A stretch of 18,490 nucleotides of DNA, from positions 1 through 18,490 of the forward strand of contig PLYD01000134.1 of assembly GCA_003151665.1 (NCBI GenBank), written 5' to 3'. A model generated the notes under the pieces. That model had not been told where the DNA came from. It searched no databases and was given only the letters and a program-made list of their open reading frames with translations. Origin of the DNA: Candidatus Dormiibacterota bacterium (lineage in GTDB: Bacteria; Chloroflexota; Dormibacteria; Dormibacterales; Dormibacteraceae). The position numbers and the translations under genes are program-made. Within the stretch, counting starts at the first letter, position 1; the number at the start of each line of letters is the position of its first letter. Below are positions 1 to 12,806 of the stretch, one piece after another.

Positions 1-2
1 TC

Positions 3-635
3 GTTTTTCAGGGGGATGTAGCTAGCGCCGCCGGCTGGTTTGGCCCTGTTTATGCCGACCAGGACGTCTGGATCGCGATCCTCGTCAGCTCGGGGCTCGT
101 CGCGTTCCCTCAATACATTGTTCTGCGGCTGCTGATACACCACTCATCGTTCGCCGGCGCGATGTGGATACCCGTGAGCGCGGTTGCGTCGCTTGCGGCT
201 GACCTGGCGATCTACGCATCGGCCGACAGGATCGCAAACGCGCTGTTTTCAGTCGGTGCGATTCAGGCATTGATGGGCCCGTTTCCATTTGTCAATCCCA
301 TTTCCGTGATCATTGCCGTTCAGGACATCACGCTTTCCGCCGTCCTCGGTCTGGCGCAAGGTCTGCTGCTGGCCAGGGTCTTCGTGGCAAGATCGGCGGC
401 CCGGCTGTGGTTCGTAGGGAACCTGGTCGCCGCGGTTGTCATCTTGATTGTCACCCTGATTCGAATGAACGTCGTTTCCACCCAAACCAATCAAACAGCC
501 GTTGACCTGTTGTTGGAGATCGCGATCCTCGGCGGGCTTTATGCCGCGGTGACCGGTATCGCGCTAATTGCTGTGTCTCGGCGATACAGCAAGGACGCTG
601 GTTCAAAGTCGAACGCGCCGTCCGCCGATGAATAG
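3..635 (+). CDS. Multi-pass membrane protein, 5' end outside the window
   Basis: The reading frame is open from the first complete codon of the window to the TAG at 633-635, so the gene probably begins upstream. An ATG at 162 is only an internal candidate. The translated part holds about five hydrophobic segments. Before the ATG, around 105-160, lies a stretch of the type PQYIVLRLLIHHSSFAGAMW. It resembles a common bacterial membrane family in which a Q..VLRR motif precedes A..W and a glycine/alanine-rich helix, and this argues against starting at 162. The C-terminal tail is short, polar and cytoplasm-like (Arg/Lys/Ser rich). No catalytic motif is visible and I assign no function. A tRNA-Ser-derived repeat begins 67 bases after the stop. 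Confidence 0.6.
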   Translation, partial: VFQGDVASAAGWFGPVYADQDVWIAILVSSGLVAFPQYIVLRLLIHHSSFAGAMWIPVSAVASLAADLAIYASADRIANALFSVGAIQALMGPFPFVNPISVIIAVQDITLSAVLGLAQGLLLARVFVARSAARLWFVGNLVAAVVILIVTLIRMNVVSTQTNQTAVDLLLEIAILGGLYAAVTGIALIAVSRRYSKDAGSKSNAPSADE

Positions 636-701
636 CTGTGCACGATGTCTTGAGACATGACAGGGTGTCTGAGTTCAGGACATAGTTCTCTAAAGCTGAC
701 G

Positions 702-739
702 GAGCGGGGAAGGAGGGATTCGTTCCGTCGATTGGCAGT
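702..739 (+). repeat. tRNA-Ser 3'-end repeat, attachment-site copy 1
   Basis: Positions 702-722 are identical over 21 bases to 14905-14925, the 3' end of the tRNA-Ser gene plus flank, including the core GGGGAAGGAGGGATTC. Weaker similarity to the tRNA continues over the next dozen bases. Beyond the core this copy shares ATTGGC (731-737 region) with the copy at 1745, as if both were ends of related elements. It is probably an old att site. Confidence 0.7.
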
Positions 740-802
740 ACCGAGTCCGAATCGCCTAATACTGCATCCAGTTGAACAGTTTTCGCGTAGTCTCTCAGCG
801 CC

Positions 803-1249
803 GTGGGGAAAACCGTCCCAGCTGCCCGCGTTGGCTCTCGGCGGCAGCGTGCGGTTGTGATTCTGCTCGTCCTGGAAGCCCTCTGGTTCGCGGCGGGGCT
901 TTATTGGACTAGCGTCAGTCATGTTGGCATCAATGGGTTGGGTTATCCAGGCTCATGGCAGCCCCAAGTCGTCGAACTGGCTGTCGTGCAAGCGGCTTCC
1001 ATGGTTGCGCTCGTTGTCTTTGCGGCGTTCGTGGCGCGGGGATCAAATGTGGCTCTTACGTTGACCCTCATCGTTGCGAGTGCACATGTTTTCATCCAGG
1101 TTGCGTGGTCCCTTTTCGGCTTCCTCTTGTTTCCCTACTATCTTCTGGCGGTAACGCTGCCTTTCAATGCGCCGTTCGTGCTTGCTGCGCCCCTCCTGAT
1201 TCTGTGCATGAGCACTCGCAAGGCCCGAAGCCTCGAGCTTCACCAATAG
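803..1249 (+). CDS. Small four-helix membrane protein, unknown
   Basis: This 148-residue protein starts with GTG at 803. About four hydrophobic helices are visible (residues about 16-36, 56-78, 82-108 and 112-134). The N-terminus is basic (GSRRQR) and the tail is short and charged, consistent with an inner-membrane protein with cytoplasmic ends. There are no conserved catalytic residues and I do not recognise the family. The start is uncertain because no good ribosome-binding site precedes it. A possible promoter is TTGGCA (732-737) with TAATAC (757-762), but the 19-base spacer is long. The gene sits alone between two tRNA-derived repeats (702 and about 1319), which suggests it arrived as a cargo or remnant of integrated DNA. 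Confidence 0.55.
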   Translation: MGKTVPAARVGSRRQRAVVILLVLEALWFAAGLYWTSVSHVGINGLGYPGSWQPQVVELAVVQAASMVALVVFAAFVARGSNVALTLTLIVASAHVFIQVAWSLFGFLLFPYYLLAVTLPFNAPFVLAAPLLILCMSTRKARSLELHQ

Positions 1250-1318
1250 GGGCGGGCACGCTCGCCAACGGCAGCAATCTAGCCCTCAAACGATTCCCCT
1301 CGTAACCAGACTCAGGCT

Positions 1319-1342
1319 GGCGGAAGGGAGGGATTCGAACCC
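1319..1342 (+). repeat. Diverged tRNA 3'-end repeat, attachment-site copy 2
   Basis: The sequence GGCGGAAGGGAGGGATTCG continues into AACCC and aligns with the tRNA-Ser 3' end with one gap and two mismatches; the T-arm signature GGATTCGAACCC is exact. No matching 5' acceptor strand, D-arm or anticodon arm is found between 1343 and 1425, so it is a fragment, not a tRNA gene. It may be a mutated att copy or the end of a different tRNA. Confidence 0.5.
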
Positions 1343-1424
1343 GCTCATCTATCTATCTGAACAGCCTCTAGCTACCGTTGAAGCACGCACCCGCGGCGTC
1401 GCGTAGCCTGATACTCAGCTCGAC

Positions 1425-1727
1425 GTGGCCGTCGAAGTATTGCTCGCCACTCTCCTTACGGCCTTGGCCGTACTCAGCCTGCCCCGCAGGCAGGTTCGAC
1501 TGCGAATCGCGTCGGCAAGCCGCGTCGGCCGCATTCAGTACGGCCTACTGCTCGGTCCGAGTGTCCTCCTTGCACTGTTGCTCTGGCTCGACGTTTGGTC
1601 TCGTTTTGAAGGACATCCGATTGGTCCGCTTTTGACGCTGATCATCCTCGCGGGGTGCCTTTGGGGTTTGGTCCTGACGGCAACTGCCGCCATGCAATCA
1701 CTCAGTACGAGAAAGACGCGGTCGTAG
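1425..1727 (+). CDS. Small three-helix membrane protein, unknown
   Basis: This 100-residue frame begins at GTG 1425. An in-frame stop at 1404-1406 prevents much extension and no other start lies between. It has three hydrophobic segments (residues about 3-18, 40-52 and 65-88), separated by basic loops (RRQVRLR, ASRVGR), and ends in an Arg/Lys/Ser tail. No motif or family is recognised. There is no clear ribosome-binding site, so the gene could be a remnant. Like the two genes before it, it lies on the + strand and ends just before a tRNA-Ser-derived repeat, which begins 18 bases after its stop. Confidence 0.42.
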   Translation: MAVEVLLATLLTALAVLSLPRRQVRLRIASASRVGRIQYGLLLGPSVLLALLLWLDVWSRFEGHPIGPLLTLIILAGCLWGLVLTATAAMQSLSTRKTRS

Positions 1728-1744
1728 GTACGGGCCACTGAGAT

Positions 1745-1782
1745 AAGCGGGGAAGGAGGGATTCCAACCTTCAATTGGCCAA
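1745..1782 (+). repeat. Element far-end attachment site (tRNA-Ser 3'-end copy 3)
   Basis: Positions 1746-1764 match 14906-14924 over 19 identical bases (core GGGGAAGGAGGGATTC). There is then one mismatch (C for G) and AACC again. It is the best candidate for the end of the element opposite the integrase and is in direct orientation with the tRNA copy, as expected of attL/attR. The stop codon of the leftward M41-like peptidase gene (1771-1773) lies within it. Confidence 0.75.
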
Positions 1783-2316
1783 AGCCGGCTTGGCGCCCGG
1801 CAGTAGCGCCTCGCTAAGGCAGCTCAGCGCCCGATGCTTAGCTACGATCTGGCGGACCTGAGCGCCGGCCAGGGTGCCCCTTGTCATGAGCAGTTGGGCG
1901 ATGGCCTCGAGAGCCGGCCAGTGCTGCGCCAACATGTTCGAGGTTTGTGCCTCCAAACGCTCGACGTAGCGAAGACGAGCGCCTTCGACGAGATCCAGCT
2001 CAGCTATCAGCTGGGCGGCGTGCTCAAAGTCGCCGCACTCGTCCCTAACCTCGGAAAGGACATGAGCATCGAGCAGCGGACCGGCCAGCGCGATCCGGGC
2101 TCGAGGGGCTATCCATGCGCGCTGCTGTGGATCGTTGGCGTCGCCGGGCATGTACCTTCGCGCCGGGGCAACGGCCACATTGAGCCAGCCCGGCGGTGGT
2201 GTGGCTCGGACCTCGGCACGCTGGTACAGGGTCACGTACTCGACCGGGACACGCTCGAGGGTGGCGATCACCGCATGTGCGGCCTCATGAAGTGCGACGC
2301 CGCGGCGATCGGTCAT
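1771..2316 (-). CDS. Stand-alone M41 (FtsH-like) zinc metallopeptidase domain
   Basis: This 181-residue protein has the zinc site HEAAH at residues 10-14 and, about 80 residues later, AGPLLDAHVLSEVRDECGD followed by FEHA, in which D96 fits the third ligand of the M41 fold. FtsH itself carries an AAA ATPase and membrane helices; neither is present here, so this is the protease domain alone. Such stand-alone forms occur in phage and island genomes, where their substrates are unknown. The ATG follows the TerL stop directly (TAG then ATG), so it is the last gene of the leftward terminase operon. Its stop falls inside the attachment repeat, so excision places the end of this gene next to the integrase gene. 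The protease fold is fairly sure; its role is not. Confidence 0.75.
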   Translation of the reverse strand: MTDRRGVALHEAAHAVIATLERVPVEYVTLYQRAEVRATPPPGWLNVAVAPARRYMPGDANDPQQRAWIAPRARIALAGPLLDAHVLSEVRDECGDFEHAAQLIAELDLVEGARLRYVERLEAQTSNMLAQHWPALEAIAQLLMTRGTLAGAQVRQIVAKHRALSCLSEALLPGAKPALAN

Positions 2317-3783
2317 CTAGCGGTCCAGGCGGCTCAGCGGATACCTGACCATGCCCGGCACTCCAACGGTGTCCGCGAACGGTGACTTCGACCCCGGTGG
2401 GCGCATGTCCTGCATCAGAGTCTTGAATCGGTCGACCTCACCGGCCTGCATCAACGGTTGCGACTGCAAGAGCTCGGCGACGCCACCCACCGCGATGACA
2501 TGGTCCTGATGGATGCTCGTGCTATCCACGACCTTGAGCCGGCCGCCCTGGACCCGGGTGACGAGGTTCAGCGCCTCTCGCCGCAGCTGGTCGTGCGGAA
2601 ACAGGACGAGCCTCTTCTCGTTGAACAACGAGTACAGGGTTCCGAAGAGGTTGGCTTGCGTCTGCGCGGTTGGGTACCGGACCTCGACGTGGACGCCGCA
2701 GAGGCGACGCTGCAGGCGTTGCTGACTGGCGACAGCCTGCGGTGCCTCAAGCCTCCATGTCCGGACACTGAACTTCTGCGTCAGCTCGGCGACCAGATCC
2801 TCGAGCACCTCAAGCTCGACAGGTTCCGAGCGCGAGCCCTGAAGTGTCCGGACAGTATCGATGACGATGAGACCGACCTCTCGATGTCCGACGGCGATCG
2901 CGGTCGGGTCGTGGACTAAGCCCACGTCAATGAACCCGACTGAGATCTGACCGGTCGCGGCGTGGCGCGCTTCCTGACCGGTCACGCAGGCGTCGTACAT
3001 CGCCGCGCTGATCCAACTGCCTGCTGGCTCCACCCATCGGCATTCCCAGAACCGAGCAAAATCGGCCGGGTGCAAGGTCCGCTCCTGCTCAGCCATGTCC
3101 GCCGCCGAGAGCCAAGGGGCCAGCTCTGACCCGGCGCGGGTCGCGAAGTAGTAGCCCTCGGTTGTCCTGGCCATCTCGCGGACCGTCCAGCCGATGGAGG
3201 TCATATCCCACCCGGCCATCGAGACAGCGATCAGCTGGCTCTTCGGGTTCTTTCCGACGCTCGACCACATGCTCGTCCACAGCCTCGAGTCGGGCTGGAG
3301 CGAGAGCTCGTCGAACCACGTCTTTCGCGGCCGGATGCCATAGGCGGTGCGGTCGTCCGAGCTCATCACCCGTAGGCGCGAGTCAGTGGCTCGGTTGATC
3401 ACCGTGCTCTTTTGGATCGTGACGTCCTCGAGCATCGGGGAGCGGTCCTTAAAGGTGCGGACGCTGTCGAGGATCAGCTCCGCCTGGTCCTGGTCGCCAG
3501 CGACCGCGTAGGACCGATGTCCAGCCGGTCCAACCAGTAAGTCAGCAAGGGCTGCAGCGGCGCAGTCCGCAGTCTTCGACTCGCCTCTGCGTCTTTCGTC
3601 GTAGACGAGGCGGTGGACCGGACGGCCGTCCTTGTGGTTGGCGAAGACTGCCTCGAAGAACTGTCGCTGGAAAGGAGCCATGACGTCACCGAAGCGCTGG
3701 CCGTCTTCGAGCACCAGCTGCTCGGCGATGAGCCTCACCGGATCCCGGTGATAGGCCTTGAGCTGCGTGGCAGTGAGCTTCAC
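2317..3783 (-). CDS. Terminase large subunit (packaging ATPase/nuclease)
   Basis: This 488-residue protein has the expected order of a phage TerL. An N-terminal adenine-binding PFQ lies at about 37-39. A Walker A of the terminase type, RRRGESKT, is at 64-71. Walker B is WFDEL at 156-160 (D158, E159), and LIAVSMAG at about 184-191 fits motif III. The C-terminal half has the RNase H-like nuclease pattern, starting with GFIDVGLVHDPTAIAV (D286) and ending with an Asp-His pair in IHQDHVIAV near residue 435. Length is normal for the family. In phages TerL translocates DNA into empty proheads and cuts it. The GTG start overlaps the preceding stop by four bases (GTGA), indicating coupling to the small-subunit candidate. 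No portal or capsid gene follows; an M41-like peptidase does. Confidence 0.88.
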   Translation of the reverse strand: MKLTATQLKAYHRDPVRLIAEQLVLEDGQRFGDVMAPFQRQFFEAVFANHKDGRPVHRLVYDERRRGESKTADCAAAALADLLVGPAGHRSYAVAGDQDQAELILDSVRTFKDRSPMLEDVTIQKSTVINRATDSRLRVMSSDDRTAYGIRPRKTWFDELSLQPDSRLWTSMWSSVGKNPKSQLIAVSMAGWDMTSIGWTVREMARTTEGYYFATRAGSELAPWLSAADMAEQERTLHPADFARFWECRWVEPAGSWISAAMYDACVTGQEARHAATGQISVGFIDVGLVHDPTAIAVGHREVGLIVIDTVRTLQGSRSEPVELEVLEDLVAELTQKFSVRTWRLEAPQAVASQQRLQRRLCGVHVEVRYPTAQTQANLFGTLYSLFNEKRLVLFPHDQLRREALNLVTRVQGGRLKVVDSTSIHQDHVIAVGGVAELLQSQPLMQAGEVDRFKTLMQDMRPPGSKSPFADTVGVPGMVRYPLSRLDR

Positions 3784-4274
3784 GAGTCGTCGTCTTCCTG
3801 AGCGGTCAGCCGGTGCCTGGCCAGCTGGGCGGCCAAACCGTTGCCGTTACCGCCCGCTCCGACCACCTTGAGGCGGGCCATGGTGGCTACCGACTCCCCG
3901 AGCTGAGCGGCGAGCAAGGCCTGCGCCCGGGTCGTGCTGATGTACTGCTGGTGGCACTTCGCGTTGCTTGGCGAGCGCTGCCAGGCTGCGAACAAGTCCC
4001 GCGCCATGATCTCCAGCTCGCAATAGCGGCGTGCTAGTGGGAGCTGGGTTGGGCCAAGCGCCCGCCCTTGCTCAGCCCGCAAACGGAGGTACTCGCCGAA
4101 GAGTCGCGACGTGCGCCGGTCGCGGCGCCTCAGCTCGGCTCGGGTACCCGCTCGCAGTCCATGGCGTCGAGCGGCCTGATTGCGGCTCGTGAAACGGCCA
4201 TCAAACGGCCGTTGGGATGCCGTTTGTGGTTCACCCGCCGTATTCGCGGAATGGTCGGTTTTCCCGTCACTCAT
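3780..4274 (-). CDS. Probable terminase small subunit
   Basis: The call rests mainly on position: a 164-residue protein directly upstream of, and overlapping by four bases, the large terminase gene. The N-terminal 30 residues are low-complexity and polar. A basic stretch follows (RNQAARRHGLRAGTRAELRR, about 31-50), then a helical core (about 55-125), a glycine-rich linker (VVGAGGNGNG) and an acidic end (QEDDDS). A basic DNA-binding N-terminal half and helical oligomerisation core fit TerS, which selects the DNA to be packaged. In satellites such as PICIs a TerS redirects packaging to the island genome. It could alternatively be an unrelated DNA-binding protein. The ATG at 4274 lies inside the end of the preceding frame (8-base overlap). 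Confidence 0.6.
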   Translation of the reverse strand: MSDGKTDHSANTAGEPQTASQRPFDGRFTSRNQAARRHGLRAGTRAELRRRDRRTSRLFGEYLRLRAEQGRALGPTQLPLARRYCELEIMARDLFAAWQRSPSNAKCHQQYISTTRAQALLAAQLGESVATMARLKVVGAGGNGNGLAAQLARHRLTAQEDDDS

Positions 4275-4575
4275 CCGGCCCCCCGGCGGGTCGCCCAGTG
4301 CTCACCTGGACGGACCCCCGGAGCGCACCTGTTTCATGCGACCCCTCGGCCGGTCTGGCGATCTCCACCAGCACCATGGGCGCGCAAAGGGAGGCGGTGT
4401 GCCGCGACTGACGGCCGAGACGGGCTCCGAGCTGCTGTCCCGCGTAATGACGGCGCGGCGCGATGCCTCGGAGCACCGCCGCGGCCACCTGGCGGCGAAA
4501 GCCGGTTAGGACCGCACTGAGCATTTGGGAGGTAAACCCGGTCTCAGCGCAGCCCTGACCGCCTGTCACCCTCAT
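4267..4575 (-). CDS. Hypothetical protein linked to the terminase operon
   Basis: This 102-residue frame lies between the 52-aa protein and the TerS candidate. Composition is Arg/Gly/Ala rich with low similarity to anything I recognise. Support is mainly positional: its ATG overlaps the stop of a nine-codon frame by four bases, and its stop overlaps the TerS start by eight. Without it there would be a 300-base gap in an otherwise gapless operon. Against it, the opposite strand holds an open frame of similar length here, including a 36-residue frame at 4399-4509 (+) with an AAGGGAGG ribosome-binding site. Codon choice does not clearly decide between them. Confidence 0.35.
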   Translation of the reverse strand: MRVTGGQGCAETGFTSQMLSAVLTGFRRQVAAAVLRGIAPRRHYAGQQLGARLGRQSRHTASLCAPMVLVEIARPAEGSHETGALRGSVQVSTGRPAGGPDE

Positions 4576-4597
4576 CGGGTCAGCTCCGGGGCGCTAC

Positions 4598-4756
4598 TCA
4601 TGACCGCACCGGCCGCTGGCAGATCCACTGCCAAAAATGGTCGAAGCAAACGCGGACGCCTTCGATAACGGTCCACGGCTCGCCGCCGCAAGGTTGCTGA
4701 TAACCGTTTGCGTCGGCGTCCGAGGCCGCGCACTGAACCGCCCACGGCTCGCTCAC
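4598..4756 (-). CDS. 52-aa Cys/Trp-rich small protein
   Basis: This short frame starts with GTG at 4756, overlapping the stop of the 229-aa gene as GTGA, and ends at the TGA at 4598-4600, which itself overlaps the next ATG. The protein has four cysteines (C9, C23, C37, C46), H40 and five tryptophans, with VCFDHFWQWICQ near the C-terminus. The cysteine/histidine spacing could bind zinc but fits no standard ribbon. The longer frame reading upstream into the 229-aa gene is Arg/Ala-rich nonsense, so the short start is preferred. Function unknown; it is probably translated by coupling within the operon. Confidence 0.5.
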   Translation of the reverse strand: MSEPWAVQCAASDADANGYQQPCGGEPWTVIEGVRVCFDHFWQWICQRPVRS

Positions 4757-5442
4757 TTCTTGGCCTTCACCGCGGCGATGTCGCCGACCAACTCCTTGAG
4801 CAGCTCGGCGAGCGGCACTACCATGCCGTCCTTGAGAGTCTTGCGCAGCTCCCCGATCTCTGAGCGGATCTGGCCTTGCTCTAGCTCGAGCGCGACCTCG
4901 TGCTTGGCCGCGGAACCCCACAGCTTCTTCAGCTGAGGCAGAGTCAAGTTCTTCAGCTCGGGGAGCCCATTGCGGGCTCCGCACTCATCGCAGGACGCTG
5001 CCAGTCGACCTGCCTCGTCGCGGGCGACCGTAGCTCCGCAATTTCTGCAACGGGAACTCGGCTCAACGCCGCGGATGTAGTCGCGCTCACTCTCCTGCTC
5101 GAGGCGTCGCTCGGCCTCTGGCGTGCCGCGCAGAGCGCCGATGGACTTGAGCACAAGCCGGTGATCGGCCTCTGGACCCGACCAACTGCCGTCCGAGTTC
5201 TTGCTCGCCCTCAAGTGGAACTGGTGTGTGTGGTCCGTCTTTCCCCTGGCCAAGCAGTCGACGCAGGCCGAGCCAGCGCTGATCAGATGACCATCGCGAT
5301 TGAGGAGTGCACCAACCGCGAGCGAGATCTTTGATGTACGGCCGTTCCATGCCGGCTCGATCGGCTCATCGCCGTCCTCAGCCTTTGGCTTCGCCTTGAT
5401 TTCCTCGACGTACTCGTCGATCAGGTCGATGGACTGGCTCAC
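4753..5442 (-). CDS. Zinc-ribbon protein of the terminase operon, unknown function
   Basis: This 229-residue protein has two cysteine-pair regions. C60-x2-C63 is followed by a His-rich stretch (TDHTHQFHL). A clear zinc ribbon follows at C132-x2-C135 and C151-x2-C154 (CRNCG and CDECG). The C-terminal 60 residues are leucine- and charge-rich and probably form a coiled coil. The N-terminus is acidic. The zinc ribbon suggests nucleic-acid or protein binding, but I do not recognise the family. It starts at ATG 5442, overlapping the stop of the 256-aa gene by four bases, and its own stop overlaps the start of the 52-aa gene. It occupies the place where a canonical phage operon would not usually have a zinc-ribbon gene, upstream of terminase. 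Confidence 0.7.
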   Translation of the reverse strand: MSQSIDLIDEYVEEIKAKPKAEDGDEPIEPAWNGRTSKISLAVGALLNRDGHLISAGSACVDCLARGKTDHTHQFHLRASKNSDGSWSGPEADHRLVLKSIGALRGTPEAERRLEQESERDYIRGVEPSSRCRNCGATVARDEAGRLAASCDECGARNGLPELKNLTLPQLKKLWGSAAKHEVALELEQGQIRSEIGELRKTLKDGMVVPLAELLKELVGDIAAVKAKK

Positions 5443-6209
5443 TTGACGCCCTCCAGTGACCGCAGAGCGGCCGCGTAGTTTTCGGCGAAGTTCTTTGCGT
5501 GCGGCTTCGTCGACTGGTCCTTGGCGCGCATCAATGCGAAGGCGCGCTCCTCGATGGTCTTCGACTCGCTGAGCGTGGTGGCAGCGCCGGTTGTCGCGCG
5601 ATGGCTGACCTCACGAATCATGGCTTCGTGGCTGACCAACTCAGCGGCCCTGAGCGACGCGTAGGCAGCCTCGGACTTCTCGGACGCCAGAGCAACGTCT
5701 GGGCGACCTGCGTCAGCGGGGCGTGCGAGGCGCTTGCTGGTGCCTGCTGGCGCTCCCGCAGACTGGGCCAGCTGGGCGACGTGGGCTCCGATGCGCTTCT
5801 TGAAATCGCCATAGCTCTCGCCAGGTTTGAGCTCTGGCGTCGGAGGATGAGCTGGCTGGCGAACCAGGCTGATCTTTGCGACAGTGCTCTGAGCCCTCGA
5901 GGGCGATTTCTCGCTTGGGTTGAGAACGCGCTCAGCGGCCTTAACCTCGCCCGCCTTGACGAGCGCCTCCACCTTCTGGCCGCGGTACCAGGCGGCGTCG
6001 TCGTGCGCGACCGCGGTCGCCTCAACGAAGTCCAAGCCAACCTCGGACATTAAGTGCTTGCGCCTTGGCTCGATGACCTCTCGCATGCGCCGCGCCATCT
6101 CGGCTGCCACCTGCGGTGGCCTGGTGGCCTGGCGCTTGATTCGGTTCTCGCGGATCTGCTTGACCTGCTCGTGCATGTCGGCGAGCTGGGCGAGGGATGG
6201 CCTAGTCAT
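5439..6209 (-). CDS. Unknown helical protein of the terminase operon
   Basis: This 256-residue, largely helical and charged protein has several segments. An N-terminal region (about 5-60) is rich in Arg/Lys/Glu with RRMREVIEPRRKH. A central low-complexity Pro/Ala/Ser region lies at about 95-165, followed by a second helical region to the end. No signal peptide, membrane segment, cysteine motif or catalytic signature is seen. The N-terminal part could bind nucleic acid. It overlaps the 63-aa gene upstream and the zinc-ribbon gene downstream by four bases each, so the three are surely one transcript. It is long for a regulator and unlike scaffold, portal or capsid proteins I know. Function not assigned. 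Confidence 0.65.
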   Translation of the reverse strand: MTRPSLAQLADMHEQVKQIRENRIKRQATRPPQVAAEMARRMREVIEPRRKHLMSEVGLDFVEATAVAHDDAAWYRGQKVEALVKAGEVKAAERVLNPSEKSPSRAQSTVAKISLVRQPAHPPTPELKPGESYGDFKKRIGAHVAQLAQSAGAPAGTSKRLARPADAGRPDVALASEKSEAAYASLRAAELVSHEAMIREVSHRATTGAATTLSESKTIEERAFALMRAKDQSTKPHAKNFAENYAAALRSLEGVK

Positions 6210-6397
6210 TCGGGCCTCGAGGTGACCACGGCGCTGGCGTCGGCGCCCTGGACCTGTGCGGTGAAATTGGTCAACGCTTCCGGCTCGACGTACAGGGTCA
6301 CAACCTTGTTCTTGTCGACCGTATAGATGCGGTCATTGACTCGAACATCGAAGACGCGGCCGCTGGTGTCGGTTGTACTCACGGTTACGAGAGGCAT
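6206..6397 (-). CDS. 63-aa beta-rich small protein, first gene of the terminase operon
   Basis: A longer frame reaches 6457, but the start at ATG 6397 is preferred. An AGGAG lies at 6405-6409, seven bases before it, and the extra N-terminal residues (Trp/Cys/Phe rich) look like untranslated leader. The protein alternates hydrophobic and polar residues (VTVSTTDTSGRVFDVRVNDR, then VVTLYVEPEAL), predicting a small all-beta domain. No homologous family is recognised. It is the first gene after the promoter at 6478-6506 and overlaps the next gene by four bases. Confidence 0.6.
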   Translation of the reverse strand: MPLVTVSTTDTSGRVFDVRVNDRIYTVDKNKVVTLYVEPEALTNFTAQVQGADASAVVTSRPE

Positions 6398-6477
6398 GGG
6401 GAAACTCCTGACTTGGAGATGCGGGCAGAAAGCCCAGAGAAGGCACCAGCGCCACATGGCGGTTGCATAGTTGCGGC

Positions 6478-6506
6478 AGCCTACCGTCCATCGGCCGGGA
6501 TAACAA
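6478..6506 (-). promoter_or_regulatory. Promoter of the terminase operon
   Basis: On the minus strand TTGTTA (6501-6506) and TAGGCT (6478-6483) are separated by exactly 17 bases, close to the primary-sigma consensus for high-GC bacteria. Transcription would start near 6471 and give a leader of about 75 bases to the ATG at 6397. This leader carries a small GGGC-TTTCT-GCCC hairpin. Confidence 0.55.
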
Positions 6507-6606
6507 CGCTTTCCGCTTGACGCGATTGTGTGCTCTGGGAAAGTGGCCTCGGGACCAGCGGGGACCGAGCCCGGTCGCTATTGAAGTTGCCGCCGTCAGC
6601 GAGTAG

Positions 6607-7203
6607 CTACGCGAATTCCTTCTGGGCGGACTTGATCAGGTCCTCAAGGTAGGCGATGTATTCGGTGAGTAATTGGGCGATCGGGATGCTCGGCGGCGGT
6701 AGCCCCAGTTGAGTGGTCACGTCCGTGAAGTACGTCTTCATAGTCATCTTCCAGTGCGTTGGCAACTCAACGTAGTAGCGCTCCTCGGTGCCATCCGCTA
6801 GCCTGACGATCCAACCAGAACCGCCCAGCTGATCGCCGATGAAGAACCCTCCTGCACCGGGCGGCGCGGGCGGTAAGTCCCTCAACTGGTTGGTGTTGAA
6901 CTCCTCGATATACACGCTGTTCGAGATGCGGCCCAGCACTCCCTCCTTAAGGACCTGGCTGCGCAGGTCGACCAGGTACTTGAATTCGGTCTTCTCGCGC
7001 ATGGCGGCCTGATGGGGTGCGTACCAGGTTTCGAACCGCTCCCTGTCAAAGGTCTTGATGTTCTGGAGGACGTTGGTCACCGCCCTGCCCCAGACCACGA
7101 CATTTCGAAGCCCGGCGATCCTCCGGCCGGGCGTGTGACCGTGAAGGAAGTCCTCGAGCCCTAGCTTCGCCGTCTCATGAGTGACCTTGGCTTCGCGGAG
7201 CAC
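6607..7203 (-). CDS. Hypothetical protein downstream of the resolvase
   Basis: The convincing part is about 198 residues. Helical segments flank a central stretch with Pro-rich PPAPPGAGGFF and a beta-like region, SGWIVRLADGTEERYYVELP. The C-terminal helix is LLTEYIAYLEDLIKSAQK. No catalytic motif or known family is seen. The frame can be extended to a TTG at 7278, but the extra residues are Arg/Ser rich. Over the same bases the overlapping 104-aa frame reads more protein-like ([14 protein letters not shown]), so GTG 7203 is chosen with low certainty. It lies at the end of the resolvase transcript and is followed by 100 bases holding the next operon's promoter. Confidence 0.55.
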   Translation of the reverse strand: MLREAKVTHETAKLGLEDFLHGHTPGRRIAGLRNVVVWGRAVTNVLQNIKTFDRERFETWYAPHQAAMREKTEFKYLVDLRSQVLKEGVLGRISNSVYIEEFNTNQLRDLPPAPPGAGGFFIGDQLGGSGWIVRLADGTEERYYVELPTHWKMTMKTYFTDVTTQLGLPPPSIPIAQLLTEYIAYLEDLIKSAQKEFA

Positions 7204-7475
7204 CGCTGCGGTATCGGCATGTCCTGCCACTGCGTGCCATCTTCGGCGACTTCGGTTGCTGGTGCGCGGCTCCAGCAAACTGGCGCCCGGCGCCGGTCAG
7301 GGACAGTGACGGGGGCTCGACTCCAGAGCGAGCCTGAGCTTTTGGCGATCTCTAAGGCCTCGATGCGGCGCCTAGTGGCCACGATCGCCCAGCCGGGCCG
7401 CGGTTCGGACTTCAGCAACCCGACCAGTAGGCGCCGCTGCCAGGCTAGCTCGAGGCGGACCAGATCAGCCGACAA
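7161..7475 (-). CDS. Hypothetical protein coupled to the resolvase
   Basis: This 104-residue frame begins at TTG 7475, inside the last codons of the resolvase gene, whose TGA is at 7465-7467, so translation would be coupled. The N-terminal half is convincing as protein: a helical stretch with [18 protein letters not shown] and [13 protein letters not shown]. The C-terminal 30 residues become Arg/Ser/Pro rich as the frame overlaps the next gene. No function is recognised. Either the two frames are separate overlapping genes, or one protein has been split by a frameshift near 7200. Confidence 0.42.
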
Positions 7476-8013
7476 GCTGGTGGCGGTACAAGGTCGCCCG
7501 GCTGATCCGCATGCTCCGCGCCACCTGGCTGATGCTCTTCCCGCTGGCTATGGCCTCCCGGATGTCGGCGAGCCGCTCCTCGTTCAGCACGCTAGGCCTC
7601 CCGAGCTTGCGGTTCCGAGCCCGCGCCGACGCTAGACCCGAGTCGATCCGCTCCTTGGTCAGAGCTCGCTCGAACTCGGCAAGGGCGGCCAACACATGGA
7701 AGATCAGCTTCCCGGTCGCGCTGGCGGTGTTGATCGAGTCGTGAAGGCTCTCGAACGCGACCCCACGCCCCGCCAGGTCCTCCACCGTGGCCAGCAGGTG
7801 GCGCATCGACCGGCCCAAGCGATCAAGACGCCAGATCACGAGTGTGTCCCCCGCCTGGAGCTCGGCCAGGCAGCGATTCAGCTCGGGGCGGTCGTCCTTG
7901 GCCCCCGAGAGCTTGTCGCTGTAGACCAACTCGCAGCCGGCCGCCTTGAGAGCGTCTAGCTGCAAGTCCAAGTTCTGACCGCGTGTACTGACCCTGGCGT
8001 AGCCTCGTTTCAT
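7465..8013 (-). CDS. Small serine recombinase (resolvase/invertase family)
   Basis: At 182 residues this is the usual length of Tn3/Hin-type recombinases. The nucleophile is S9 in YARVST. The conserved arginine motif LDRLGRS is at about 63-69, and the E-helix region [19 protein letters not shown] at about 104-122. The C-terminal 40 residues form a Hin-like helix-turn-helix ([19 protein letters not shown]). The family cuts and religates DNA at paired res or inversion sites. In an island this could resolve dimers of the replicating circle or invert a segment. The -10 box ends six bases before the ATG, so the message is probably leaderless. A 10-base inverted repeat at 8061-8094 upstream may be part of its target site. 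Confidence 0.88.
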
Positions 8014-8019
8014 GTACTA

Positions 8020-8049
8020 ATGATACAGGTTTATGCGACAGGAAATCAA
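8020..8049 (-). promoter_or_regulatory. Resolvase promoter, probably leaderless
   Basis: On the minus strand TTGATT (8044-8049) and TATCAT (8020-8025) are 18 bases apart. The ATG at 8013-8011 begins seven positions downstream of the -10, where transcription should start. Confidence 0.55.
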
Positions 8050-8060
8050 GATCAGCGTCC

Positions 8061-8094
8061 ACATGTCTCAGAAACAGTTGATTGTGAGACACGT
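8061..8094. repeat. Inverted repeat upstream of the resolvase
   Basis: ACATGTCTCA (8061-8070) and TGAGACACGT (8085-8094) are complementary at 9 of 10 positions around a 14-base spacer. The site lies just upstream of the resolvase -35 box, the usual place for a res subsite or autoregulatory operator. Function is inferred from position only. Confidence 0.45.
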
Positions 8095-8144
8095 GGAACC
8101 TGGCTGGGCACAGGAGTACCTTGTTGGCGAGGAGGTGATGCCAC

Positions 8145-8306
8145 ATGCCAGACGAAGCAAAGGTCAAGGAGGCTGGCGCGCTCATCAAGCGAGCTGCGCG
8201 CCAGCTCGCCGACGCGGGGAACGCGCAAACGTGGGATAGGGCCAAGGCCGCAATCGCACAGGCCGCGACGTACCTGCGCCGCGCCGGTGACGAGCTGGAA
8301 AGCTAA
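8145..8306 (+). CDS. 53-aa helical small protein
   Basis: This short frame has an excellent ribosome-binding site: AGGAGGTGA, fully complementary to the 16S tail, at 8130-8138, six bases before ATG 8145. The 53-residue product is almost entirely alpha-helical, Ala/Lys/Arg/Glu rich, with KEAGALIKRAARQLADAG and AAIAQAATYLRRAGDELES. These are probably two amphipathic helices forming a hairpin. No family or function is recognised. A strong hairpin starts three bases after its stop. An overlapping longer + frame (8033-8239) lacks such a site. Confidence 0.6.
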   Translation: MPDEAKVKEAGALIKRAARQLADAGNAQTWDRAKAAIAQAATYLRRAGDELES

Positions 8307-8308
8307 AA

Positions 8309-8361
8309 CGCCCGTTCGGCCGAAACCAGGGCTGGACGGCCGGGCGGGCGCTGGAGCGCCC
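8309..8361 (+). terminator. Overlapping alternative hairpins after the 53-aa gene
   Basis: Bases 8309-8321 pair with 8338-8350 (13 pairs, two of them G-U) around a 16-base loop. A second hairpin, GGGCGC (8346-8351) with GCGCCC (8356-8361) around TGGA, shares bases with the first, so both cannot form fully. There is no T-tract, so an intrinsic terminator of the U-less type or a regulatory RNA structure is possible. Confidence 0.45.
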
Positions 8362-8454
8362 CCTAGCTGGCCTTCCCGCCCTTCAAGAAGTCCTGCTGAT
8401 CGCCAGCTGCCGGCTATACGGAGCGCTTCCTCGAGAGTAGGCTCGTGACCGGGT

Positions 8455-9162
8455 ATGGGCGGACTCATCGGGCTGCTAATCAAGGGCATAGTCGCGTTGG
8501 CGGTGTTCAGCGCCTACGCGCTCTGGCACCTCATACGTCTTTCTATGCTGGCTGTCGCCTACGCCGTAAGAGTCACCGTTCAGCTCCTCAGCCAGCGCAG
8601 CGGCGGCCAGGTTTCGCCGGATAACCGTTACTGGTGGAACGGACAGCGGTGGGTGCCAAGGCTTCCGGCAGGGATGTGGATCGTTCCTGGCGCCGCCGTC
8701 GCCGTCCTGCTCCTAGCGGCCGGAATGTGCACCGCATCACTGCAGACGCCGCCTAGCAGCAATCCCGGAGGAACCGTCGCGGATGCACGGGCCGGTCCCA
8801 CCGATTCACCAACGCCAAGTTCGGCCGCAACGCCGACAGCAACCTCACGCTCGACACCCTCGCCTAAGCGGCGCACGGTCCCGCCTACAACACGAACCAC
8901 ACCGCCGCCTACACGAACTAAACCGCCACCTAGTACGTGCGGCGCACCCGCGAATCCATTCGGGTACGACTTCTGCTCACCCCCCAGCCTGATATATAGC
9001 CCGCCGTCATCCTTCTGTGGTTACTTCAATTGCATCCCGAGCTTCTGGAAGAGCACTAACGGCTACGTCGACGAGTGCAGCGACGGCACGTACAGCCACT
9101 CAGGCGGCCGCCAGGGTGCGTGCTCCTACCATGGCGGCGAGTTGCGGCCTCTCTATTCGTAA
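8455..9162 (+). CDS. Membrane-anchored surface protein with a DUF3761-like C-terminus
   Basis: This 235-residue protein has a modular layout. A hydrophobic N-terminus (about 4-44) is followed by a DUF2510-like module, SPDNRYWWNGQRWVPR (54-69), and a second membrane helix (about 73-92). A long Pro/Thr/Ser linker (95-160) then leads to a cysteine-rich outer domain with C162, C174, C188, C193, C208 and C223. The end, DECSDGTYSHSGGRQGACS followed by YHGG, matches the signature of DUF3761, a small extracellular domain of unknown function. A TAGGCT -10 box (8438-8443) lies 11 bases before the ATG. The short aromatic module also occurs in the Ltp-like protein encoded just downstream on the other strand. 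The surface location is well supported; the role is unknown. Confidence 0.72.
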   Translation: MGGLIGLLIKGIVALAVFSAYALWHLIRLSMLAVAYAVRVTVQLLSQRSGGQVSPDNRYWWNGQRWVPRLPAGMWIVPGAAVAVLLLAAGMCTASLQTPPSSNPGGTVADARAGPTDSPTPSSAATPTATSRSTPSPKRRTVPPTTRTTPPPTRTKPPPSTCGAPANPFGYDFCSPPSLIYSPPSSFCGYFNCIPSFWKSTNGYVDECSDGTYSHSGGRQGACSYHGGELRPLYS

Positions 9163-9254
9163 ATTAGCAAATCGCGGTTTACACGCGGTCGGACGAAATG
9201 ATCGCTCGAAGCCGGCGAGCCTTCCACCTACATCAGGGCCCGTTCGGCGGGATT

Positions 9255-9338
9255 CTATGGGCGATTCCTGCCGAGTGGTACCGCAGCCACGGCCAAGATG
9301 ACCAGCAGCGGAACGAAGACGATTGGCATTCGAATCAT
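9255..9338 (-). CDS. 27-aa hydrophobic peptide coupled to the Ltp-like gene
   Basis: ATG 9338 follows an AGGAGGA ribosome-binding site (9344-9350) that overlaps the stop codon of the Ltp-like gene (9349-9351), so translation is likely coupled. The product is 27 residues: a short basic N-terminus, one hydrophobic helix with FVPLLVILAVAAVPLG, and a polar end (RNRP). It is a single-pass membrane mini-protein by composition. It resembles phage membrane micro-proteins and type I toxins only in size and hydrophobicity. I do not recognise it. Confidence 0.5.
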   Translation of the reverse strand: MIRMPIVFVPLLVILAVAAVPLGRNRP

Positions 9339-9348
9339 GTTTTTCCTC

Positions 9349-9930
9349 CTAGCAAGCTCCTGCTTGCTTCGCTCCATATGTAGCCTGAGCGACTGTGTAC
9401 TTGTCACCGGCCGACGAGTCCAGTTGCTGGATCAGGCCCTTGCATGAAAAGCCCGAGATGCTCAGGTACTGCTTGGCCGATTGCACGGCCTCTGCGTTCC
9501 AATTCACGTGGAGGCTATCGACGGCGATGGTCGCATCCCGAACCGAGTACCCGTCGCCAGCCGATGACGAGAGCTGGTCAATGAGACCCAGCCGCGAAAA
9601 GCCTGAGATGCTCAGGTACTGTTGGGCTGACCTTGCTGCGTTCTGCTGCTGATTCGTCAGGGTGGGGCCAGCCGGTGTCGGGCTCGCCTTGGCGGTTGGG
9701 CTGGCCTGTGCCGTCGGTGAGCTGATTGCAACCGCGGCGTTCTGAGGCGTCTTGCCACCATTTGCAATCGCCGCGCCAATGCCGACTAGGAGCAGAGCAC
9801 CGACCACGATGCCGATGTTGCGTAGCTTGTGGGACTTCTTGGGTGGAGCCGCCGGCGGTCCCCCGTTAACTGGGATCCACGCGGTTCCGTTCCACTGATA
9901 CTTGCCGTCCGGCGAAAGCTGGGCGCTCAT
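9349..9930 (-). CDS. Ltp-family (superinfection-exclusion-like) membrane protein
   Basis: This 193-residue protein begins with a DUF2510-like module (SPDGKYQWNGTAWIPV, 6-21). A membrane helix (about 39-57) and a Ser/Thr/Pro/Ala linker (60-92) follow. Two repeats then come, each with A..YL....FS..GLI.QL followed by Y(S/T)V..A (about 98-146 and 148-190). These are the helical repeats of the Ltp host cell-surface family (PF07553), named from the TP-J34 prophage lipoprotein that blocks DNA injection by other phages. Unlike that protein it has no lipobox and is held by a transmembrane helix. The two repeats contain a 26-base DNA match (9446-9471 and 9596-9621, one mismatch) offset by exactly 150 bases, indicating internal duplication. 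It has its own promoter at 10026-10055. Confidence 0.78.
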   Translation of the reverse strand: MSAQLSPDGKYQWNGTAWIPVNGGPPAAPPKKSHKLRNIGIVVGALLLVGIGAAIANGGKTPQNAAVAISSPTAQASPTAKASPTPAGPTLTNQQQNAARSAQQYLSISGFSRLGLIDQLSSSAGDGYSVRDATIAVDSLHVNWNAEAVQSAKQYLSISGFSCKGLIQQLDSSAGDKYTVAQATYGAKQAGAC

Positions 9931-10025
9931 GACTCTTTTCTTTGTGTGATCGAGTAGAAGTCCGGCACTCTCGGCATCTCGAGCTCCTTTGGTGGGAGCG
10001 AGCGAGAGCTCGCTGTAAAGCGAAC

Positions 10026-10055
10026 GCTATACCCATCCAACAACCTCGGCAACAA
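10026..10055 (-). promoter_or_regulatory. Promoter of the Ltp-like gene
   Basis: TTGTTG (10050-10055) and TATAGC (10026-10031) on the minus strand are 18 bases apart, predicting a start near 10019 and a leader of about 90 bases. The leader contains short inverted repeats (for example AGCGAG and CTCGCT around 10000). Confidence 0.5.
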
Positions 10056-10086
10056 CTTCTCTCAATGATGGACTTTGTAGTCTCTT

Positions 10087-10148
10087 TAGACCTAGCGGTC
10101 TCCATAGACTCCGTAGACCGGTCTACGGTCTATGGGTCTACAGGGTCT
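10087..10148. repeat. GGTCTA/TAGACC repeat cluster with an 18-bp perfect palindrome
   Basis: The palindrome CCGTAGACCGGTCTACGG occupies 10111-10128 and is extended by CCATAGA (10102-10108) pairing with TCTATGG (10129-10135). Around it lie about eight copies of GGTCT(A) or (T)AGAC(C): 10087, 10097, 10105, 10114, 10120, 10127, 10135 and 10144, many 7-9 bases apart. It covers the last codons of the HEPN-like gene and the region upstream of the Ltp promoter. An operator, replication or partition site is possible. Confidence 0.65.
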
Positions 10149-10711
10149 GTGCGCGTGTCGGAGCTGTCGGTGGCCGCCTCCAATGCCATCGCTGCGTGCT
10201 TAGGGTCTTTGCGCCGGGTGAAATTCACCAGATCGACCACCACGAACAGACCGGCCTTCATCGCATCGCCAGCATCTTTCGCGAGCTTCTCCATTTCGGC
10301 GCGGGGCATTCGAACTAAGCGAAACGGGCCTCTCCTCAGTCCCTCTAACTCATCAGGTCCGACCGAAGACCATATCGTGTGCACGACCTCATTCCGGCGC
10401 CGCCCGATCTCCCGCGCAGACTCGATCCAAACCTTCCAACGGTCGAGGAGATCGCCTTCTGGCAAGAACGTAGGTGCTAGGCGGAGTAGCGTGTCCAGCA
10501 CGGCGCCATGCGTCAACCGCCTGAACGCCAGGTCGACCTTACCGAAGTCCGCATCCATCGAGATGGCCAGCGCGATGATCGCGATGTGCTCGAGGGCAGC
10601 GCATGTAACAACGAGCTCACCAACTAGCGTCCTGTCTTCGTCTCGAAGTTGCGCTGCCATGCTTGAAAGGGTCTCACACCCGAAGTGATCCCCTATGAGA
10701 GGGTCAGTCAT
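10130..10711 (-). CDS. HEPN-like protein with an Rx4H motif
   Basis: This 193-residue, mostly helical protein starts at ATG 10711, which shares a base with the stop of the RepA gene (TGATG), so the two are coupled. A TTG one codon earlier is less likely. The motif RNEVVH at 106-111 fits the R(N)x3H signature of HEPN RNases, and the preceding helix has ALEHIAIIAL (39-48). HEPN proteins are frequent in toxin-antitoxin and abortive-infection systems, but some are inactive or only bind nucleotides. No MNT-type or other antitoxin partner is recognised next to it. The C-terminal tail is polar and is encoded by the palindromic repeat cluster. It may be a replication accessory protein instead. Confidence 0.5.
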   Translation of the reverse strand: MTDPLIGDHFGCETLSSMAAQLRDEDRTLVGELVVTCAALEHIAIIALAISMDADFGKVDLAFRRLTHGAVLDTLLRLAPTFLPEGDLLDRWKVWIESAREIGRRRNEVVHTIWSSVGPDELEGLRRGPFRLVRMPRAEMEKLAKDAGDAMKAGLFVVVDLVNFTRRKDPKHAAMALEAATDSSDTRTDPVDP

Positions 10712-10819
10712 CAAAGGGGATCAAATGTGTTGTGTGACCCCCTATGCGTGTTGAATACGACCCCCCGCTCCTCGGGCGAAGTGATCCCCTTTGGCGTGCC
10801 GTCCTGTTGATCCCCTATG
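10681..10819. repeat. Five iteron-like repeats at the end of repA
   Basis: Five copies of TGATCCCCT(A/T)TG occur at 10686-10697, 10712-10723 (inverted), 10735-10746 (one mismatch, GACCCCC), 10782-10793 and 10808-10819. Two are preceded by CGAAG. Starts are 26, 23, 47 and 26 bases apart. They lie in the 3' end of the RepA-like gene and the start of the next gene, a plausible replication origin. Confidence 0.65.
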
Positions 10820-11820
10820 CGCCAGCTCCAGTAACCCTGCTTCCCAAAGCCCACTCGCTCGGCGACGATCCCCATCTCCTTCTTGGCTCGCTTCAGGGTG
10901 GCCGGCGGTATGTCGTGTTCGTCCGCGGCCTCGAAGATGCGCTTGGAGTCCACCGGCCCATCGGCTAGGAGCTCTGCGAGTAGATCCTTGGCGGTCGTTC
11001 TGGGCCGTGGACGGCCGAAGGCGATCATCAGATCCTCCGCCATCTGGTCCGTCTCTTCGCCCCATACGATCCGCGAGGTGGGGATCGTCTGCGAACCCTC
11101 GGTGAGCGTCACGCCCTCGATCTGGTAGCGCTGGGACCGCGGCTTAATCCCAAGGTTGTTCTTGAGCACCGAGAAGACGAACGTATCCGGCTGGTCTGGG
11201 TCTTTCACCACGCCGAACACGGTCCTGGCCAAGGCGGAGAAGCCGATGCTCCCCAACCCTCGATACAACGCATTTGGCACTCGGTCCTGCTTGTTCAAGT
11301 GTCGGAGTGCGACGCCGGCGCAGCCTGTGCGCTCGAGCATCTCCACCAGCGGCGTCATGGCGCGTCGGACGTCGTGCTCGCTGTTGGCGTTGGCCGAGTC
11401 GGAGAGGAAGGCGCTTAGCGGGTCGAAGCCGATCAACAGCGCGTTGTCTTCGATGATCAACCCCTCCAACAGGTTGATGTCCTCGGGGATTGAGATCAAC
11501 CTCTCGCCGCCGTCCTGGGCCGGAATCGTTGCCACGAGACGCACCTTCGAGCAGTCGGCGCCGGCCGCCACGAGGCGGGGCACCACCGTGGCTTCCCAGC
11601 TGTCTTCGGCGCCGACGATGATCACGCCTCCGACCTCGCACGCGCTGCCATCGGGCCAGGGCATGCCGGTGGTGATGTGTGAGGCCAACGCCGCGAGGAT
11701 CTGGGACTTGCCGCGCTCCGGGTCTCCGTCGAAACCTGAGAGGACGCCGCGCGCCAGCCGGTTGGGCCACAACCAGTCGACGGCTTTCATGCTGAGCAAG
11801 CTGGCTTTGCGCCCGACCAT
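10711..11820 (-). CDS. RepA-like AAA (RecA-fold) replicative helicase
   Basis: This 369-residue protein has a RecA-type ATPase core like that of plasmid and phage RepA hexameric helicases (AAA_25 class). Walker A is GDPERGKS at 32-39, then GGVIIVGAED (64-73). Walker B is ALLIGFD at 127-133 (D133), and a sensor-like VALRHLNK lies at about 170-177. After a linker, residues about 280-335 look like a winged helix (TAKDLLAELLADGPVDSKRI), followed by GYWSWRI. The family unwinds DNA at an origin. Its last 40 codons carry iteron-like repeats. ATG 11820 follows directly after the stop of the 66-aa gene. It implies that the excised element can replicate. Confidence 0.8.
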   Translation of the reverse strand: MVGRKASLLSMKAVDWLWPNRLARGVLSGFDGDPERGKSQILAALASHITTGMPWPDGSACEVGGVIIVGAEDSWEATVVPRLVAAGADCSKVRLVATIPAQDGGERLISIPEDINLLEGLIIEDNALLIGFDPLSAFLSDSANANSEHDVRRAMTPLVEMLERTGCAGVALRHLNKQDRVPNALYRGLGSIGFSALARTVFGVVKDPDQPDTFVFSVLKNNLGIKPRSQRYQIEGVTLTEGSQTIPTSRIVWGEETDQMAEDLMIAFGRPRPRTTAKDLLAELLADGPVDSKRIFEAADEHDIPPATLKRAKKEMGIVAERVGFGKQGYWSWRIGDQQDGTPKGITSPEERGVVFNTHRGSHNTFDPL

Positions 11821-12683: not shown

Positions 12684-12691
12684 CGGGCCAA

Positions 12692-12720
12692 ACGGTACGC
12701 ACTTGGGAACGCTTGGACAA
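12692..12720 (-). promoter_or_regulatory. Repressor promoter (leftward)
   Basis: TTGTCC (12715-12720) and TACCGT (12692-12697) on the minus strand with a 17-base spacer. The ATG follows eight bases after the -10 box. Confidence 0.5.
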
Positions 12721-12796: not shown

Positions 12797-12798
12797 AT
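12770..12798 (+). promoter_or_regulatory. Promoter of the integrase operon (rightward)
   Basis: TTGACG (12770-12775) and TACCAT (12793-12798) are 17 bases apart. GTG 12807 lies eight bases beyond the -10 box, which predicts a leaderless message. Confidence 0.6.
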
Positions 12799-12806
12799 TC
12801 CGAACT

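What the first reader, a model, noticed from the sequence alone, without database searches (positions are those of the whole stretch)
702..1782. tRNA-Ser-derived repeats punctuate single membrane-protein genes
Three direct copies of the tRNA-Ser 3' end (702, diverged 1319, 1745) follow three + strand genes one by one: 3-635, 803-1249 and 1425-1727. Each gene encodes a small membrane protein and each segment is only about 0.4-0.6 kb, with no integrase. Copies 702 and 1745 share bases beyond the tRNA core (CC-N-TC-N-ATTGGC), so they look like ends of related elements. This is either repeated accretion of islands followed by deletion, or a cassette-like array acquired by the serine integrase at one tRNA.
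Basis: partly seen in the sequence, partly recalled or inferred. Interest (0 to 1): 0.75.

Follow-up and report, generated by a model that had tools for sequence, protein, structure and literature searches.

The report
Stacked integration scars beside tRNA-Ser
In a soil bacterium, mobile elements have repeatedly inserted at the end of one transfer-RNA gene and mostly worn away, leaving short copies of the tRNA end between small leftover genes; the process is known, but the leftovers here are unusually small.

Summary
The repeats are real. Copies of the tRNA-Ser(GCT) 3' end start at 704, 1319 and 1747, in the orientation of the intact tRNA at 14907, and follow ORFs 3-635, 803-1249 and 1425-1727. 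The window is Candidatus Dormibacterota. Each copy looks like an attL: about 18 bp of tRNA end plus an arm of about 35 bp. The same arms recur in other genomes beside the same tRNA; between genomes, little besides these first 34-58 bp of a unit is shared. Close relative L001 lacks 704-14906 and has its own three copies. Integrase remnants, a large serine integrase running into the tRNA, and changed tRNA 3' ends show how the copies arose. Best reading: repeated serine-integrase insertion, then deletion down to 0.35-1 kb (tandem accretion, CIME-like remnants), as published for Dehalococcoides ssrA islands. Against pure decay: N-termini of metagenome proteins show arm A directly before members of the 3-635 and 1425 families, and arm A precedes 803 here. 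True cassette mobility is therefore not excluded, but no circle, cassette integrase or in-trans reaction was seen.

The parts
3..635 (+). membrane-protein ORF (5' end outside the window), cargo of the unit upstream of the first visible scar
   Evidence: 47 homologs; L001 homolog lies between a type-A scar (8998) and the tRNA; homolog P0013 carries a translated type-A scar directly upstream
636..703 (.). old 3' flank of the tRNA, near-identical to the present tRNA flank of L001; contains an IS481-like end (family name recalled, not tested)
   Evidence: 59/60 and 58/59 (plus one gap) identical in bins 601-660 and 661-720; 27-28 bp match beside tRNA-Ser ends in L005 and L120
704..759 (+). scar 1 (attL-like): 18 bp tRNA-Ser 3' end plus type-A arm
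   Evidence: 56 bp, 87.5% to L001 8998-9053
803..1249 (+). small membrane-protein gene, sole recognised gene of unit 704-1318
   Evidence: ORF; homolog P0049, 66% over 89%
1319..1373 (+). scar 2: diverged tRNA-Ser 3' end plus type-B arm
   Evidence: 88-92% over 50-52 bp to L002 5921 and L007 253
1425..1727 (+). 100-aa membrane-protein gene, sole recognised gene of unit 1319-1746
   Evidence: 11 homologs besides itself; four-helix model of low confidence (pLDDT 62)
1747..1782 (+). scar 3 = attL of the 13-kb element, type-A-like arm
   Evidence: 85% to copy 1; arm 25 of 36 identical to the L001 type-A arm (null: 24 at 99%, maximum 26)
1747..14905 (.). 13-kb phage-derived element (TerL 2317-3783, AAA_25 10711-11820, resolvase 7465-8013, superinfection-exclusion-like 9349-9930)
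   Evidence: in G030 a related TerL (61%) lies 5.6 kb from a related integrase (54%) beside tRNA-Ser(GGA)
13463..14962 (+). large serine integrase; its last 18 codons and stop overlap the tRNA 3' end
   Evidence: Resolvase + Recombinase + Zn ribbon domains; sequence
14907..14998 (-). tRNA-Ser(GCT), the attachment target; CCA not encoded

Best explanation
The 3' end of tRNA-Ser(GCT) is an attB used again and again by elements with large serine integrases. Each insertion puts a new element between the tRNA and the older DNA, restores the tRNA end from the element's attP, and leaves the old tRNA end at the far side, fused to the element's attP arm (attL). Later deletions, perhaps helped by insertion sequences, remove the integrase and most of the element but leave the attL scar and sometimes one gene. 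The window shows two such remnants (704-1318, 1319-1746) and one largely intact phage-like element (1747-14905), with the oldest visible unit at the left edge. Shown: scars with shared arms, a relative without the units, integrase remnants, changed tRNA ends. Inferred: the order of events, deletion as the cause of the small size, and retention of the genes by selection.
For: (a) W 23-731 aligns to L001 9175-9876, where the tRNA follows at once; the last 100 bp before scar 1 match the L001 tRNA flank. (b) Ten copies beside this tRNA in W, L001, L002, L007 and L150, each in tRNA orientation. Between genomes, units share their first 34-58 bp (core plus arm); the only other cross-genome matches are the 3-635 gene, a 63-bp integrase end, a 27-28 bp IS-like end, an arm match in L254 and one 40-bp match to L033. 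(c) With the tRNA-encoded tail cut off, integrase sequence remains in the flanks of W, L007 (C-terminal part), L021 (frame broken, 55%) and L001 (8919-9026, running into scar 8998), and in no other of the 69 distinct flanks at E 1e-3 with these two queries (a few flanks are under 1 kb). (d) 53 of 69 loci encode CCA; W and L001 do not and carry a changed acceptor strand. (e) The nearest integrase relatives also sit at serine tRNAs. (f) The same architecture, with 15 of 31 islands lacking the integration module, is published for Dehalococcoides ssrA (PMC3146451).
Against: No intact element with arm B, C or D, or with the exact arm A, was found; two arm-A patterns and one B/C pattern had 0 matches in viral contigs; A and B were sought in 110 class genomes, C and D only in fetched loci. 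Scar 1319 has an old-type acceptor strand between two new-type scars, so the strata are not simply ordered. L002 and L150 have scars yet encode CCA; the link of CCA loss with scars or integrase is weak: 4 of 16 against 2 of 53, p 0.023, and p 0.067 with W and L001 counted once. The left ends of units with the same arm are not alike (by eye; no match). W and L001 are 97.6% identical beside the tRNA, so two insertions with extensive deletion, or a precise loss in L001, must have been quick.
Confidence: 0.72

Rival explanations
1. Cassette system: 0.35-0.9 kb circles with one gene and one attP are integrated in trans at tRNA-Ser by serine integrases of resident elements, like integron cassettes but with serine chemistry.
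For: One arm type precedes different genes: A before 803 (W), before the 3-635 family (L001, P0013) and before a 1425 homolog (P0053); the 1425 gene follows arm B in W. Five of the small units hold one apparently complete gene: 3-635 family, 803, 1425, Imm74, DUF2019-like. Units differ between close relatives W and L001.
Against: Units L001 7394, L001 8427 and L007 250 have no single dominant gene, and the last two contain integrase remnants. No shared left end among units of one arm. P0057 may carry a second tRNA-end copy before the gene (p 0.011), so arm swapping for 1425 rests mainly on P0053. No integrase shown to act in trans.
Confidence: 0.16
2. The array grows and shrinks mainly by recombination between the scars themselves (homologous or integrase-mediated), so L001 has lost 704-14906 rather than never having had it. 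This can hold together with the best explanation.
For: L001 matches W on both sides of the missing stretch; the A arm before 1425 homologs in other metagenomes suggests the array is older than the W-L001 split (inference).
Against: No intermediate genome; the L001 genome has no match to 803 or 1425.
Confidence: 0.35
3. Chance: tRNA T-arm-like sequence is common, and the repeats mean nothing.
For: The T-arm is conserved among tRNAs; the 1319 copy is diverged; two reverse hits occur in other surveyed flanks (L013, L143), the L013 one lying in a tRNA-Ser(TGA).
Against: 5 chance hits in 2.79 Mb; the ten copies share one orientation and lie within 2.5 kb stretches; arms are conserved between genomes.
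Confidence: 0.01

Closest known systems
Dehalococcoides ssrA genomic islands with serine integrase DsiB (PMC3146451; abstract, passages and one results section read)
   Same: Chloroflexota (recalled); tandem islands marked by repeats of the RNA gene's 3' end; integrase ORF overlapping the RNA gene; many islands without an integration module
   Different: target is tmRNA, not tRNA-Ser; 16 of 31 islands carry integration modules, and reductive dehalogenases are frequent cargo (vcr islands about 12 kb); no 0.4-kb one-gene units described in what I read
CIME and tandem accretion of ICEs/IMEs (PMC5704250, passages only; Pavlovic 2004 seen only as a reference)
   Same: att-flanked remnants that lost integration genes, with later insertion at the attR inside the target gene
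   Different: mobility of the remnants is not shown here; the one large element here looks phage-derived, not conjugative
SCC elements with CcrA/CcrB (recalled; CcrB and SCCmec named in PMC3146451)
   Same: large serine recombinases, tandem insertions at one gene end, elements lacking recombinase
   Different: different target; W integrase scores 52 bits against a CcrB cut-off of 900
Integron gene cassettes (recalled)
   Same: one small gene plus one recombination site per unit, immunity-type cargo
   Different: serine, not tyrosine, integrase; sites are a tRNA-end copy plus an arm; attC not tested

Membership tests
tandem-accretion array / CIME | units inserted at the 3' end of a tRNA or other fixed gene end | tested here: met
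tandem-accretion array / CIME | units bounded by direct repeats of that gene end | tested here: met
tandem-accretion array / CIME | remnants lack integrase and transfer genes | tested here: met
   636-1746 has no match to two integrase queries; 803-1249 and 1425-1727 match no Pfam family above cut-off. Other small ORFs there were not scanned
tandem-accretion array / CIME | site without the units in a relative | tested here: met
   L001; L150/L151 as a partial second pair
tandem-accretion array / CIME | remnant att sites still functional for cis mobilisation | not testable with these tools
   needs excision assays or junction reads
large serine integrase | Resolvase, Recombinase and zinc ribbon domains | tested here: met
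   13463-14962
Dehalococcoides ssrA island / SCC | target ssrA or orfX with DsiB/CcrB-family integrase | tested here: not met
   target is tRNA-Ser(GCT); CcrB model far below cut-off; DsiB itself was not compared
integron cassette | tyrosine integron integrase acting on folded attC sites | not tested
   the recombinases identified in the window are serine type, but not every ORF was scanned and attC models were not run
serine-integrase cassette system (hypothetical) | same complete unit, both ends conserved, at independent sites | tested here: not met
   9 units against 260 fetched sequences: only core plus arm and short pieces are shared between genomes, except the 3-635 unit at the same locus in W and L001

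The most novel reading that the evidence does not exclude
The units are genuine mobile single-gene cassettes: short circles with one attP that large serine integrases of resident elements insert, in trans, at serine tRNA genes of Dormibacterota, giving integron-like arrays of membrane and immunity-type proteins.
Probability: 0.13. Interest if true: 0.82.

Novelty: new member of a known kind. Interest (0 to 1): 0.42.

Why it matters
It is a readable record of repeated serine-integrase insertion at one tRNA in a little-known phylum: each scar keeps an old tRNA end and the attP arm of a vanished element, so target use and tRNA 3'-end replacement can be ordered between strains. If the small units prove mobile, it would be a gene-cassette system built on serine integrases.

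Tried and rejected
Rejected: chance; scatter of the repeats over the relatives' genomes; conserved core genes; an Rfam RNA in 1-3000 (three matches of 14.6-17.1 bits against gathering scores of 50-68). Led nowhere: viral contigs for TerL, for the 3-635 and 1425 families and for three arm patterns; plasmids for 3-635; phages for the integrase (664 records, all under 60% identity, the ten listed 26.6-27.9%); PADLOC and NCBIfam for the small genes; structure models of 3-635 and 1425 (pLDDT 66 and 62), too weak for a fold search, so none was run. ORF length is not evidence: 1 of 9 units has an ORF longer than shuffles at p below 0.01. I first took P0053 to carry a second scar before its gene; the test gave p 0.40 and I dropped it. 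The type-D arm pair (L001 7394, L150 2806) scores 23 of 36 over the arm, equal to the 95% null, though 34 bp match at 88% with the core included. Integrase matches in L003 and L015 vanish when the tRNA-encoded tail is cut off; L015 was first counted as a remnant and the CCA test gave p 0.006; without it p is 0.023. The L175 hit (7248) is a purine run and was not counted.

Full report
Observation. The window holds one tRNA, tRNA-Ser(GCT), 14907-14998 on the minus strand. Copies of its 3' end start at 704, 1319 and 1747, with 3, 5 and 2 mismatches over 26 nt. The scan at up to 7 mismatches gave 5 chance hits in 2.79 Mb of shuffled flank. ORFs 3-635, 803-1249 and 1425-1727 lie before the three copies. 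The extra shared bases noted between 704 and 1747 are there.

Organism. The gene after the tRNA (15059-17302, glycoside hydrolase 15) gave 77 distinct loci out of 538 relatives found (capped list); the closest, L001 (PLJM01000018.1, Candidatus Dormiibacterota), is 97.6% identical over 14905-18490. No genome is held for the window.

Relative without the units. Window 23-731 aligns to L001 9175-9876, and there the tRNA follows directly. The alignment of 601-720 shows 2 mismatches and 1 gap, while the gene differs more (dN/dS 0.755, dS 0.175, against 0.065 and 0.082 for GH15). So L001 lacks 704-14906. But L001 has three copies of its own at 7394, 8427 and 8998, with the 3-635 homolog in the last unit. 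A second, partial pair is L150 (G256, scar at 2806) and L151 (G098): 2713-2824 matches 9085-9198 at 92%, so the last 90 bp or so before the scar resemble the tRNA flank of the relative; further out the two diverge.

Scars and arms. In all, ten copies lie beside this tRNA in five loci: W 3, L001 3, L002 2, L007 1, L150 1. I tried 87 loci (the window, L001-L026, L121-L180); 81 gave a tRNA-Ser(GCT) call; 12 are repeats of the same locus, leaving 69. Of these, 63 have at least 1 kb and 51 at least 5 kb of 3' flank, so absence of scars is not informative for all. One weak forward hit (L175) was not counted; reverse hits occur in L013 and L143. Comparing units between genomes, the shared DNA is the first 50-58 bp for types A (W 704, L001 8998), B (W 1319, L002 5918, L007 250) and C (L001 8427, L002 6266), and 34 bp for type D (L001 7394, L150 2806); B and C share 31 bp. 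The other cross-genome matches are the 3-635 homology between W and L001, a 63-bp integrase end (L001 and L007), 27-28 bp of an insertion-sequence-like end, a 45-bp arm match in L254, and one 40-bp match to L033. Arm identities are 31/36 (A), 29-31/36 (B), 27/36 (C) and 23/36 (D), against a null of 23 at 95%, 24 at 99% and a maximum of 26. This is what attP half-sites of integrase families would leave.

Integrases. The window's integrase (13463-14962) has the three domains of a large serine integrase, and its frame runs into the tRNA 3' end (18 codons and the stop). Its closest relatives that run over most of its length or lie at this tRNA, among 110 class genomes, are at tRNA-Ser(GGA) in G030 (54%) and G048 (45%), and at tRNA-Ser(GCT) in G274, where the frame is broken (55%); a 78% N-terminal piece in G259 ends at a contig edge with no tRNA seen; five of the more distant ones among the 12 loci checked are beside tRNA-Gly. 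After cutting off the tRNA-encoded tail, integrase sequence is found in 4 of 69 flanks: W, L021, L007 (only the C-terminal part, between its scar and the tRNA) and L001 (8919-9026, running into scar 8998). The last two show that at least some units were larger elements.

The tRNA end as a record. 53 of 69 loci encode CCA and 16 do not; the script printed 20 without, but four rows (L124, L125, L127, L128) were misread and are TGGCGGG. W and L001 also have GCGGGGAAGGAGGG where the others mostly have GCGGGAAGGGAGGG. L001's two distal scars carry the old form, its proximal scar and tRNA the new one. W is less tidy: 1319 is old-type between two new-type scars. Loci with scars or integrase sequence are 4 of 16 without CCA and 2 of 53 with it (p 0.023; p 0.067 when W and L001 count once): a weak link, and kinship is ignored.

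Cargo. 3-635: 47 homologs. 803: the window's own protein and P0049. 1425: 12 proteins including itself. In relatives: Imm74 (E 3e-9), DUF2019-like (E 0.2, below cut-off), CsbD-like (E 5e-6, below cut-off). In 6 of 9 units the longest complete ORF covers at least 64%; in 3 of 9 (L001 7394, L001 8427, L007 250) at most 41%; in L150 the longest ORF counted there is not the DUF2019-like one, whose frame ends inside the tRNA. None of the three window genes matched a Pfam family above its cut-off.

Evidence for a cassette-like side. Sixteen proteins with an N-terminal extension were compared with the translated scars; P0013 (3-635 family) and P0053 (1425 family) score above all 3000 shuffles, P0057 (1425 family) has p 0.002; two others (P0022, P0056) had nominal p of 0.03-0.04 and are not counted. 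So in other metagenome contigs the same arm stands directly before these genes. Arm A thus precedes three gene families, and the 1425 gene is seen behind A and behind B. The DNA of those contigs could not be fetched. P0057 may have a second copy between (p 0.011); for P0053 this was not supported (p 0.40).

Interpretation. Repeated insertion by large serine integrases at one tRNA end, with decay, explains the anatomy and is the published model for accretion: integration, decay to a CIME, and integration of a newcomer in the attR that holds the gene end (PMC5704250, passages). The Dehalococcoides ssrA islands are the nearest case: tandem islands, 20-bp repeats, a serine integrase overlapping ssrA, and 15 of 31 without an integration module (PMC3146451). 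What is unusual here is the size of the remnants and the arm-to-gene links. Literature searches on accretion, serine integrases with cassettes, tRNA fragments and Dormibacterota with integrase (listings only) showed no title or abstract start describing such one-gene units; that is a limited search.

Verdict. Real, mostly explained by a known process; the cassette reading stays open at low probability.

Noticed in passing
1747-14905: 13-kb phage-like element with TerL, AAA_25, small resolvase and a superinfection-exclusion-like protein; no capsid or portal hit among the proteins scanned. G030 holds a 61% TerL 5.6 kb from the 54% integrase at tRNA-Ser(GGA).
   Followed up: partly
13463-14962: Integrase frame continues into the tRNA 3' end, as reported for DsiB and ssrA in Dehalococcoides; a similar tail (G-[EK]-GGIRTLEG) is readable from the tRNA in the 13 loci printed.
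   Followed up: partly
L120 6870-8470 (G003): A second serine tRNA, tRNA-Ser(GGA), also has 3'-end copies downstream (about 7180, 7811 and 8450, the first two by eye); the 7811 copy resembles the GCT-type end.
   Followed up: partly
636-703; L003, L005, L007, L119, L120 beside tRNA-Ser ends: IS481-like ends (name recalled, by eye) abut tRNA-Ser 3' ends or scars in several genomes, perhaps a target preference or deletion endpoints.
   Followed up: no
3-635: Gene differs from its L001 homolog with dN/dS 0.755 while the neighbouring GH15 gene has 0.065: fast evolution or allele exchange.
   Followed up: no
L254 7030-7074 (G277): Type-A arm (82% of 45 bp) about 100 bp after another tRNA-end-like copy (6897-6930), followed by a 133-aa ORF; the other copy (10203-10236) lies inside a serine integrase ORF.
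   Followed up: partly
L150 2656-2711 and 3272-3327: The 3' part of the DUF2019-like gene is duplicated (91%) on both sides of the scar, hinting at two successive insertions of related units.
   Followed up: no
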